Part shown: piece after piece, positions 12,290 through 15,004 of the stretch
Numbering within the stretch: the first letter of the stretch is position 1
Layout of the letters: every line of letters starts with the position of its first letter
From: Acinetobacter corruptisaponis
Lineage (GTDB): Bacteria > Pseudomonadota > Gammaproteobacteria > Pseudomonadales > Moraxellaceae
Direction of reading: 5' to 3'
DNA: 64,000 bases
Assembly (NCBI RefSeq): GCF_030053775.1
Contig: NZ_CP125669.1
Coordinates: 620,001-684,000 of the forward strand
Position numbers and translations under genes: made by a program
Notes under the pieces: generated by a model
Databases searched by the model: none
Told to the model about the DNA's origin: nothing
The model's input: only the letters and a program-made list of their open reading frames with translations

Positions 12290-13858
12290 TTAATCAGCAT
12301 TCACCACCTTATAAATCATTTTCCCCATTTCATGTGCCTGTAAACCTCTCATGCCATTCTCAGCGAGTAAGTCTCCTGCCTGTGCATGTAGACTCACAAT
12401 TTCATGCAATGCGATCTGTTGATGAAACTGGGCCTTTAAACTGGCAATCATCCCTGCCAACACATCACCCATACCCCCTGTTCCCATCCCAGGATTACCC
12501 TGTGTACAGATAAATAGTTCATCTTCTAAAATCAGGCTACCTGCACCTTTCAATACCCATTGTCCTGCATATTTTTGTTGCAGTTGTTGAATTGCAGTGA
12601 TTCGATCTTGTTCAATATCAGCAGGCTTGCAACCTAACAAAGTCGCAGCTTCACCTGAATGTGGTGTTGCATAGACATGCTGATTCAATTTTTGTGGATG
12701 CTTTGCCAGAAACCAAAGTCCATCCGCATCAAGCACGACCTCTAAATGCGAACTTTGATTGAGTGAATCAAACCATTGTTGATAAATCTGTTCAGCCCAT
12801 TCATCTCGCCCCAACCCCATACCAAAACAGACAGTATCCACATGGTTTAATAAAGTTTGGATTCCACCTTGATCCAATACATTAATATCCCGCACCATAA
12901 TGTTTGGTGAACGCGACAAAATCGCCTGATGGTGTTTGGCATGACAGACCACGCTGACTTTTCCAGCACCTGCATGAAAAGCGGCTTCGGCTGACATGAT
13001 CACAGCTCCACCCATATCCGCATGACCACCCACCACCAGTACATGCCCATAACTGCCTTTATGACCAAAGGCCTGACGTTTAGGCAAAGCGATTTTTTCA
13101 GGGGAAAGATAGGCGATTGGTTTTAATTCCACATCAGTTGGAATCAGGCTGACTAAATGTAGCTGCCCGACATATTCCTTGCCTTGTCCAGTAAACAGCC
13201 CTGCCTTATATCCTAAAATGGTAAAGGTTTGATTTGCTTGAATTGCACAGGGTAAAGCCTGACCTGTATTGGCATGCAATCCACTAGGGATATCGATTGA
13301 AACTTTTAAACCAGTTTGTGCATTAAAACATGCAATAACAGTTTGCCAATGTTGATCAAGTACTCGGTTTAAACCAATGCCAAACAAGGCATCAATATGA
13401 CAATCAACCTCTCCTAACCTCTCCTTAAAAAGGAGAGGAACTTCAGGGATTATATAAGGTATTGAATACGAGGAAGTCTCCACCCTATCAGGGGAGAGAT
13501 TTAGAGGGGGGTATGGAAATCGTTGAATATTGACTTGATGCGCTTGTGCATATTCATAAGCTTGTTTTAAATCAGGTGATTGACCAAGTTCTGTTGCATA
13601 AACAGTCACATTAAATCCATGTTGTTTAAGAAAAGCCGCAATATAATAGCCATCACCCGCGTTATTACCCTGTCCGCACCATACCGCAATCGTTTTAATA
13701 TGTTTTTGTTGAAACTGTTCAATCAATTGTCGGGATATTGTCCACGCCGCTTGCTGCATCAAGCCAAGTGATGAGTTTTGCTGTGCAAACCAGCGTTGCT
13801 CCCATACTTGAATACTTTGGCTATGATAAACAGGGCTATGGTAAACTGAACCTTGCAT
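12290..13858 (-). CDS. nnrD: Bifunctional NAD(P)HX epimerase/dehydratase
   Basis: A 522-residue YjeF-type repair enzyme. The N-terminal epimerase domain (VWCGQGNNAGDGYYIAAFL) interconverts R- and S-NAD(P)HX. The C-terminal dehydratase has VVGGHADMGGAVIMSAEAA and the nucleotide-binding GNPGMGTGGMGDVLAGM, converting S-NAD(P)HX back to NAD(P)H with ADP. Between them, about 36 residues (roughly 119-155, starting PYPPLNLSPDRVE and ending PLLFKERLGEV) are encoded by a palindromic repeat that keeps the frame open. The start lies only 21 bp from the divergent queG start. tsaE does not follow, unlike in E. coli. Confidence 0.93.
   Translation of the reverse strand: MQGSVYHSPVYHSQSIQVWEQRWFAQQNSSLGLMQQAAWTISRQLIEQFQQKHIKTIAVWCGQGNNAGDGYYIAAFLKQHGFNVTVYATELGQSPDLKQAYEYAQAHQVNIQRFPYPPLNLSPDRVETSSYSIPYIIPEVPLLFKERLGEVDCHIDALFGIGLNRVLDQHWQTVIACFNAQTGLKVSIDIPSGLHANTGQALPCAIQANQTFTILGYKAGLFTGQGKEYVGQLHLVSLIPTDVELKPIAYLSPEKIALPKRQAFGHKGSYGHVLVVGGHADMGGAVIMSAEAAFHAGAGKVSVVCHAKHHQAILSRSPNIMVRDINVLDQGGIQTLLNHVDTVCFGMGLGRDEWAEQIYQQWFDSLNQSSHLEVVLDADGLWFLAKHPQKLNQHVYATPHSGEAATLLGCKPADIEQDRITAIQQLQQKYAGQWVLKGAGSLILEDELFICTQGNPGMGTGGMGDVLAGMIASLKAQFHQQIALHEIVSLHAQAGDLLAENGMRGLQAHEMGKMIYKVVNAD
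13406..13512. repeat. In-frame palindromic repeat element inside nnrD
   Basis: About 107 bp with imperfect terminal inverted repeats: CCTCTCCTAACCTCTCC at the left and, reversed and complemented, CCCCCTCTAAATCTCTCCCC at the right. A perfect inner hairpin CCTCTCCTT/AAGGAGAGG lies at 13418-13438. Its length and phase leave the nnrD frame intact. It resembles small non-coding palindromic repeats dispersed in Moraxellaceae, and the Rickettsia palindromic elements in being carried inside a protein gene. That it is a dispersed family is inferred; this window has only one copy. Confidence 0.65.
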
Positions 13859-13879
13859 GTTTTCCCCTATTATTGGTTT

Positions 13880-15004
13880 ATGGCTTCTACCACATCATCC
13901 GAGAAACTGTCTCAAAAAATCAGGCTACAACAGCTTGATCCTCAAGAGCTTAAAGCGTGGATAAAAGCACAGGCTTTGGCATTGGGTTTTTCTGATTGTG
14001 TCATTGCCAAACCAGATGCTCAAGATCAAATGCCACGTTTTAATGAATATTTAAAGCGTGGTTATCATGCAGATATGCACTATTTGGAAGAAAATCTGGA
14101 AAAACGTGCTGATCCAAAATTGCTCGTTCCTGGCACAAAAAGTATTATTTGTGTGCGAATGAACTATCTTGTGGCATCACCCAAGCCCCGTTATGTACCA
14201 TTCGAACCAAATTCAGCCATTATTGCGCGTTATGCACGTGGACGTGATTATCATAAAATCATGCGTGGACGGCTTAAAACTCTGGCCACCAAAATCAGGG
14301 AAAAAGTGGGCGATTTTGAATCACGTCCTTTTGCCGACTCAGCTCCTATTTTTGAGAAATCTCTGGCTGAAAGTGCAGGTATGGGCTGGACAGGCAAACA
14401 TACCCTACTCATCCATAAAAAATCAGGCTCTTTTTTTGTGTTAGGTGAATTATTTACTTCACTTGAACTGCCTTTTGATCAGCCTGCGACTGCACATTGC
14501 GGTTCATGTACCGCCTGTATCGACATTTGCCCAACCCAAGCGATTGTTGAACCCTATATGCTGGATGCCAGAAAATGTATTGCCTACTTAACCATTGAAT
14601 ATAAAGGCATCATTCCAGAAGAATTACGTTCAGGCATAGGTAACCGTATTTTTGGCTGTGATGACTGTCAGTTGATTTGTCCTTGGAATAGCTTTGCCAA
14701 AACTGCATCCATTCCAGATTTCGACCCAAGACATGGTTTAGACAACATCAGTTTACTGGATATCTGGCAATGGGATGAAGCGACTTTTCTTACCAATACT
14801 GAGGGCAGTCCAATACGCCGTACAGGTTACCAATCCTTTAAGCGTAATATTGCAATCGGTTTAGGAAATGCGCCATACTCGGCTGAAATCATAAGCCAAT
14901 TGCAAGATGCAAAAATGTGGCACGATGAGATCGTCAATGTACATATTGACTGGGCAATCCAACAGCAATTGCAGCAGGCGACAATACATGGCATGGAAAA
15001 ATGA
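13880..15004 (+). CDS. queG: Epoxyqueuosine reductase QueG
   Basis: A 374-residue cobalamin-dependent [4Fe-4S] enzyme that performs the last step of queuosine formation in tRNA. Two ferredoxin clusters are seen: CGSCTACIDICPTQAI and the later GCDDCQLICPWN with an extra Cys in ARKCIAYLT. N-terminal cobalamin-domain motifs include ADMHYLEENLEKRADP and FADSAPIFEKSLAESAGMGW. ATG 13880 is chosen over an upstream TTG; no clear ribosome site precedes either. The start is 21 bp from the divergent nnrD start, so the promoters must overlap the neighbouring coding sequence. Confidence 0.95.
   Translation: MASTTSSEKLSQKIRLQQLDPQELKAWIKAQALALGFSDCVIAKPDAQDQMPRFNEYLKRGYHADMHYLEENLEKRADPKLLVPGTKSIICVRMNYLVASPKPRYVPFEPNSAIIARYARGRDYHKIMRGRLKTLATKIREKVGDFESRPFADSAPIFEKSLAESAGMGWTGKHTLLIHKKSGSFFVLGELFTSLELPFDQPATAHCGSCTACIDICPTQAIVEPYMLDARKCIAYLTIEYKGIIPEELRSGIGNRIFGCDDCQLICPWNSFAKTASIPDFDPRHGLDNISLLDIWQWDEATFLTNTEGSPIRRTGYQSFKRNIAIGLGNAPYSAEIISQLQDAKMWHDEIVNVHIDWAIQQQLQQATIHGMEK

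What the first reader, a model, noticed from the sequence alone, without database searches (positions are those of the whole stretch)
13406..13512. A palindromic repeat element is translated inside the NAD(P)HX repair enzyme
About 107 bp with inverted ends and an inner perfect hairpin sits in frame within nnrD and adds about 36 residues without stop or frameshift. The encoded segment (PPLNLSPDRVE to PLLFKERLGEV) has no place in the YjeF fold. The parallel is the Rickettsia palindromic elements carried in coding genes. Such tolerated insertion is unusual in gammaproteobacteria.
Basis: partly seen in the sequence, partly recalled or inferred. Interest (0 to 1): 0.6.

Follow-up and report, generated by a model that had tools for sequence, protein, structure and literature searches.

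The report
Translated palindromic repeat inside nnrD
A short palindromic DNA repeat that normally sits between genes in Acinetobacter has landed inside a metabolic repair enzyme gene and reads as an extra protein loop; this is a real but known kind of event, here with an unusually readable history of spread and decay.

Summary
Window 13406-13512 is exactly one 107-bp dispersed element: two inverted hairpins joined by an outer stem. It lies in frame in nnrD (12290-13858, minus strand, 522 aa, uninterrupted). At least 16 other places in the own genome match, none inside a frame of 80 aa or more. Relatives occur in 117 of 175 Acinetobacter genomes searched. Of 126 places whose context I checked, two lie well inside a recognised gene, both in nnrD at the same site in two species; a third is an N-terminal candidate in a LolA-like gene.

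None of 46 nnrD loci from other named records has the full element, so it is not a normal domain. A. venetianus keeps one arm; ANC 4805 perhaps a weaker vestige. In the second carrier (G143, near A. modestus) the element sits in a roughly 400-bp recombinant patch resembling ANC 4805. The encoded peptide shows no purifying selection; the flanking enzyme does.

Best reading: a REP-dimer-like repeat, translated, tolerated in a variable loop, passed between species by recombination, then decaying. Translated palindromic repeats are known in Rickettsia and gammaproteobacteria: a new member of a known kind. No RAYT gene tied to it was found; other transposase types were not searched.

The parts
12290..13858 (-). 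nnrD, bifunctional NAD(P)HX epimerase/dehydratase, 522 aa, intact frame
   Evidence: TIGR00196 and TIGR00197 over their cut-offs; NF007856 matched below its cut-off
13406..13512 (-). 107-bp inverted-hairpin-dimer element, read in the one frame of six that is open; encodes PPLNLSPDRVETSSYSIPYIIPEVPLLFKERLGEV
13418..13438 (.). hairpin unit A, 9-bp perfect stem, 3-nt loop
13475..13501 (.). hairpin unit B, imperfect stem
   Evidence: more mismatched than in several intergenic copies
13407..13416 (.). outer stem, left arm
   Evidence: helix 1
13502..13512 (.). outer stem, right arm
   Evidence: helix 1

Best explanation
The segment is one copy of a dispersed, normally intergenic Acinetobacter repeat built as an inverted dimer of two hairpins (REP-dimer or BIME-like). 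A copy took the place of the native loop between two strands of the NnrE (YjeF_N) domain of nnrD, in a frame without stops, so that the enzyme gained a probably unstructured loop. The peptide is tolerated ballast: it changes freely while the rest of the enzyme is conserved. The element-bearing allele moved between species by homologous recombination (shown for G143) and decays in some lineages (one arm left in A. venetianus). Shown: repeat family, in-frame location, absence of the full element in the relatives examined, a recombinant patch in G143, no sign of purifying selection on the peptide. Inferred: that the protein is made and active, that there was a single original insertion, in which lineage it happened, and that the loop is unstructured. 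The insertion mechanism is unknown.
For: Own-genome copies; 16 of 17 own places and 8 of 9 places in G143 are not inside a frame of 80 aa or more. One open frame of six in the window copy; 11 of 96 frames open in the 16 other own copies. 46 of 46 nnrD loci of other named records lack the full element (45, A. junii); of the 30 best genus loci only G000 and G143 have it; a DNA search of 175 genomes found the full element in nnrD only in these two. Between the two carriers: element 3 synonymous and 13 nonsynonymous differences (omega about 1.5), flanks omega 0.13 and 0.06; codon-position test p 1.5e-4 against all flanks, 0.006 against the nearest 60 codons on each side. G143 is 93-100% like A. 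modestus L040 in all 60-bp bins left of the patch; in the four bins flanking the element it is 68-85% like L040 and 87-98% like ANC 4805/G121. Informative sites: 23 ANC 4805-like to 3 A. modestus-like at 1717-1797, and 31 to 3 at 1986-2109. The two nnrD copies are sisters in a tree of 15 copies (93/95). A. venetianus keeps an arm (0 of 2000 mononucleotide shuffles as good). Predicted structure: residues 117-146 below pLDDT 50 between strands 110-113 and 153-157.
Against: Between the two carriers the element is far less diverged (91 of 107 identical) than fourfold-degenerate sites in the flanks (70 of 155; p 2e-11). Plain vertical descent does not fit, and independent insertion at one site is not excluded. 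The recombinant patch is not clean: the bin at the right end of the element is 88% like L040 and 77% like G121, with 6 of 6 informative sites at 1951-1980 A. modestus-like; right of the patch identity to L040 also varies, 79-100%. The ANC 4805 vestige is weak (p 0.017). The structure model is poor overall (mean pLDDT 61, 19 sequences). The selection test rests on 16 differences. No protein or RNA evidence.
Confidence: 0.8

Rival explanations
1. The same site in nnrD was hit independently by the same repeat subfamily in two lineages (an insertion hot spot), rather than by one insertion that spread.
For: Element divergence is much lower than flank divergence, and identity falls right at the left end of the element. 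Other copies of the subfamily are nearly as close to the window copy over aligned columns (79-84%, gapped) as the G143 nnrD copy is (85%, ungapped), though with lower scores (at most 110 against 150).
Against: Same orientation, same frame, same ends, no indels; the two nnrD copies pair in the tree at 93/95; recombination into G143 is directly visible.
Confidence: 0.25
2. The segment is a functional, selected part of the enzyme (a regulatory loop or binding site).
For: Retained in frame in two species.
Against: Omega about 1.5, with 13 of 16 changes nonsynonymous; low confidence and no secondary structure in the model; reduced or absent in relatives.
Confidence: 0.07
3. A normal variable loop of NnrD that resembles a repeat by chance.
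For: The loop varies in length in the genus even without the element.
Against: Full-length DNA matches in the same genome at E 3e-16 and 7e-9; exact ends; the ordinary loops of two other species do not match the element (p 0.74 and 0.80).
Confidence: 0.01
4. RAYT-mobilised REP element in the strict sense.
For: Hairpin units in inverted dimers; a RAYT-like gene in the genome, and RAYT-like matches also in G143 and G166, which carry the element family.
Against: The own RAYT has a different REP on both sides (GTAGGGGCGAA...TTCGCCC). In 8 RAYT loci from 6 genomes no hairpin motif of this family lies near the gene; the only match is about 680 bp upstream in L246.
Confidence: 0.1

Closest known systems
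Intragenic REP dimers (PMC3733652, 2013; section 15 read, other passages)
   Same: Short hairpin units, inverted dimers, mostly intergenic, some within coding regions as 20-30 aa; in Xanthomonas recB different REPs lie at about the same site.
   Different: Units here carry CTAA/TTAG at the stem base, not GTAG or CGTC; Acinetobacter has 0 occurrences in that text.
Rickettsia palindromic elements (RPE; via passages of PMC2229807, and PMC10969869)
   Same: 105-146 bp, terminal inverted repeats, in frame within conserved enzymes, tolerated.
   Different: RPEs are reported in frame in many genes; here 2 of 126 places. No RPE sequence was compared.
ERIC/RU elements in enterobacteria (PMC2759123, passages)
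   Same: Intergenic repeats with open frames found fused to genes in gammaproteobacteria.
   Different: Other elements (103, 127 and 168 bp classes); sequences not compared here.
MITEAba12 (PMC6382973, passages)
   Same: Short inverted-repeat element of similar length (113 bp) in Acinetobacter.
   Different: It has 16-bp ends shared with ISAba12 and 9-bp target duplications; no duplication was seen here by eye, and IS ends were not compared.

Membership tests
REP/BIME-type repeat (broad sense) | hairpin units of about 20-40 bp, in inverted pairs | tested here: met
   single units of about 35 nt also occur
REP/BIME-type repeat (broad sense) | dispersed copies, mostly outside genes | tested here: met
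GTAG or CGTC REP superfamilies | GTAG or CGTC tag at the stem base | tested here: not met
   read by eye from the sequences: CTAA/TTAG instead
RAYT-associated REP | REPs of the family flank a RAYT gene | tested here: not met
   8 loci of 6 genomes; RAYTs below the sensitivity of these searches could be missed
Rickettsia palindromic element | palindromic, about 100-150 bp, in frame in a conserved gene | tested here: met
   translation itself not shown
Rickettsia palindromic element | frequent in coding genes | tested here: not met
   2 of 126 places inside a recognised gene, plus 1 N-terminal candidate
Rickettsia palindromic element | sequence kinship with an RPE family | not tested
   no RPE sequence fetched
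MITE | target site duplication, and ends shared with an IS | tested here: inconclusive
   no duplication seen by eye at nnrD or at own copies; IS ends not compared

The most novel reading that the evidence does not exclude
The NnrD loop is a permissive landing site at which the same repeat has been gained more than once, by repeated insertion or by recombination tracts little longer than the element, so that a non-coding repeat behaves as a transferable protein-segment cassette. The LolA-like gene, where two different repeat families occupy the same N-terminal spot in two related species, would be a second such site.
Probability: 0.3. Interest if true: 0.55.

Novelty: new member of a known kind. 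Interest (0 to 1): 0.42.

Why it matters
It adds Acinetobacter to the bacteria whose dispersed palindromic repeats can lie in frame inside a conserved enzyme, and it offers something rare: natural alleles with the full element, with a remnant and without it, in related species. One of them (G143 against A. modestus) differs near the element by a short recombinant patch. That makes the cost or neutrality of such an insertion directly testable. Four searches of the held open-access library aimed at Acinetobacter palindromic or REP-type repeats listed no paper that by its title or abstract start describes this family (one search found none at all); I did not open most listed papers.

Tried and rejected
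Rfam had no match to 13000-14000 at E<=1. The local repeat search found no direct repeat and one unrelated inverted pair. That the genome's RAYT mobilises this family was rejected. Pfam Y1 transposase matches occur in 35 of 175 genomes, among the 9 genomes only in G000; a protein search with the own RAYT also found relatives in G143 and G166, so the Pfam search alone misses some. The frame-specific peptide search (22 of 175 genomes at E<=1) found a long frame through the element only in nnrD; a 517-aa frame in G024 is read-through upstream of the likely start of a pyridine-nucleotide oxidoreductase gene, and in two other long frames (G011, G117) no element is visible. Frames of 106, 142 and 139 aa through copies in L147, L269 and L311 have no Pfam family over cut-off. 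One of the two structure predictions allowed was used; its model is poor. Paper search returned nothing relevant; search 62 aimed at the guanylate kinase work, which I know only through review passages.

Limits of counts. One search scored 150 of 476-725 candidates per genome and its listing was cut, so copy numbers are lower bounds; one search scored 22 candidates per genome. The 126 places are 26 rows (test: inside a frame of 80 aa or more with 30 nt to spare), 18 new of 22 loci (100 aa, 60 nt; 4 were places already, and 3 further loci were dropped there as duplicates) and 82 loci (100 aa, 45 nt); L266 and L275 had cut flanks, so their coordinates were wrong and I judged them from the frames and motifs printed. 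One search aligned nnrD from 20 of 23 fetched loci (G140 twice); 3 (G001, G152, G089) gave no frame in my filter. nnrD loops were seen for part of the 163 genomes with an nnrD match, not for all. Gene names of neighbours (purH, purD and others) are recalled from the sequences, not annotated by a call.

Full report
Check of the observation. The window lies in an Acinetobacter genome (G000, 4.15 Mb; window = C1:620001-684000). nnrD is a single frame, 12290-13858 on the minus strand, 522 aa, with both domains recognised by Pfam and NCBIfam. The strand folds into an outer stem enclosing two hairpins, one of them a perfect 9-bp stem. The consensus fold of nine copies is the same. Its stems covary by three of five measures; the number of pairs with a double change (119 of 500 shuffles as high) and of further pair types do not exceed shuffles. 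Two of the nine are the nnrD copies, so this is evidence for the family and not for nnrD alone.

A repeat family. In the own genome the window copy (queried with 141 bp) finds full-length relatives at E 3e-16, 7e-9 and 2e-5 and two partial ones. The model finds at least 17 distinct places including nnrD (list truncated; the weakest used is E 3.5e-4). Across 175 genomes of the genus, own genome included, 69 match the window DNA at E<=0.001 (many hits are single hairpins of about 35 nt) and 117 match the model at E<=1e-7. I examined the gene context of 126 distinct places: 26, 18 new ones and 82. Only the two nnrD copies lie well inside a recognised gene. A third, in G121, lies in frame between a conserved start codon and the signal peptide of a LolA-like gene; its true start is uncertain. 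Three more lie in frames of 106-142 aa without Pfam support. The family is thus largely intergenic, and nnrD is an exception.

Frame. The window copy has one open frame of six, the one that is used; the G143 copy has that frame and one on the other strand. Among 16 other own copies 11 of 96 frames are open, against 15% in shuffled sequence. The element is not specially adapted to be read through. The LolA-like candidate uses a different frame (PPSKSP...) from nnrD (PPLNLS...).

Relatives of nnrD. None of 46 nnrD loci from other named records has the full element: 45 seen, A. junii. Among the 30 best genus loci (window included) only G000 and G143 have it, and the DNA search of 175 genomes found it in nnrD nowhere else. 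The loop of related species is about 18 residues of unrelated sequence, and about 9 in the A. baumannii group; A. venetianus has a long loop of its own with one arm of the element. The solved relative TM0922 has about 22 residues where the window protein has about 50, between two separately aligned stretches of which the first is weak. In the model the segment 117-146 is below pLDDT 50 between two strands; the model is weak overall, so this is only consistent with a surface loop. The native loop is missing where the element sits, so this is a replacement rather than a clean insertion. I saw no target duplication.

History. In a tree of NnrD without the loop the window groups with A. venetianus (98/85), while G143 groups with A. 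tjernbergiae, A. modestus and G114 (99/95). The A. venetianus allele (L038, identical in the tree to G171) keeps one arm of the element ending in the same junction; none of 2000 mononucleotide shuffles matched as well. ANC 4805 (L039, identical to G121) has a weaker similarity (p 0.017). Two ordinary loops show none. G143 is 93-100% like A. modestus L040 in every 60-bp bin left of the patch. In the four bins flanking the element it is 87-98% like ANC 4805 and 68-85% like A. modestus. The bin at the right end of the element goes the other way (77% and 88%). Farther right it is again mostly A. modestus-like, 79-100%. Informative sites are 23 ANC 4805-like to 3 A. modestus-like at 1717-1797 and 31 to 3 at 1986-2109, with 6 of 6 A. 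modestus-like at 1951-1980 between them. The element allele therefore reached G143 by homologous recombination, in a patch that is not perfectly clean.

Selection and age. Between G000 and G143 the flanking coding sequence has dS about 1.2 and omega 0.13 (left) and 0.06 (right). The element has 3 synonymous and 13 nonsynonymous differences, omega about 1.5 (small numbers). The excess of changes at codon positions 1 and 2 is significant (p 1.5e-4 against all flanks, 0.006 against the nearest 60 codons on each side). So the peptide shows no conservation as a protein. Yet 91 of 107 element bases agree, against 70 of 155 fourfold sites. The two copies seem to share an ancestor more recently than the genes around them. 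Copies at three intergenic sites with the same neighbours in both genomes are 76-78% identical over aligned columns, but only 48-67% of the alignment length matches because of gaps; this speaks against strong nucleotide-level constraint on the family, without excluding it. A tree of 15 copies pairs the two nnrD copies (93/95). Either the element travelled in short tracts, or the same subfamily hit the same site twice; I favour the first.

Mechanism of insertion. Unknown. The genome's RAYT-like gene (E 1.5e-16 to the NCBIfam RAYT model, below its cut-off) has another REP family on both sides, and eight RAYT loci from six genomes, G143 and G166 among them, are not flanked by this family. The units lack GTAG and CGTC tags. 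Other transposase families were not searched.

Comparison with what is known. The phenomenon is established: RPEs in Rickettsia (passages of PMC2229807 and PMC10969869), intragenic REP dimers in several gammaproteobacteria (PMC3733652, section 15 read, which also reports different REPs at about the same site in recB of two Xanthomonas and cautions about N-terminal cases), and ERIC-like elements in enterobacteria (PMC2759123, passages). This is a family and a gene that I did not find described, not a new kind. It works like an RPE insertion, but it fails the RPE trait of being frequent in genes and was not compared with RPE sequence.

Noticed in passing
L141 1501-1606 / L254 (G121) and L255 1384-1480 (G034): In a LolA-like gene an element of this family (G121) and, at the same N-terminal place, a RAYT-type REP (G034) lie in frame between a conserved start and the signal peptide; orthologs in G158, G136 and G096 have neither, and the G171 ortholog was not compared. 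A start codon downstream is possible in both.
   Followed up: partly
L082 (A. junii CIP 64.5), about 2785: nnrD is split between two frames near residue 283: a frameshift or a sequencing error.
   Followed up: no
L083/L246 (G000:C1:1647701-1648213): A RAYT-like gene with inverted GTAGGGGCGAA...TTCGCCC REPs on both sides.
   Followed up: partly
L002 and L004, flanks of the element: Outer sequences of the type CCCCCTTTTTCAAAG flank some copies, in L002 as a further inverted module, so copies can be mosaics of several hairpins.
   Followed up: no
G163 and G102: Pfam Y1 transposase matches in high number (23 and 12).
   Followed up: no
L005/L179, L166/L178, L169/L180: G000 and G143 carry diverged copies at intergenic sites with the same neighbours, so the family has probably long occupied them.
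   Followed up: partly
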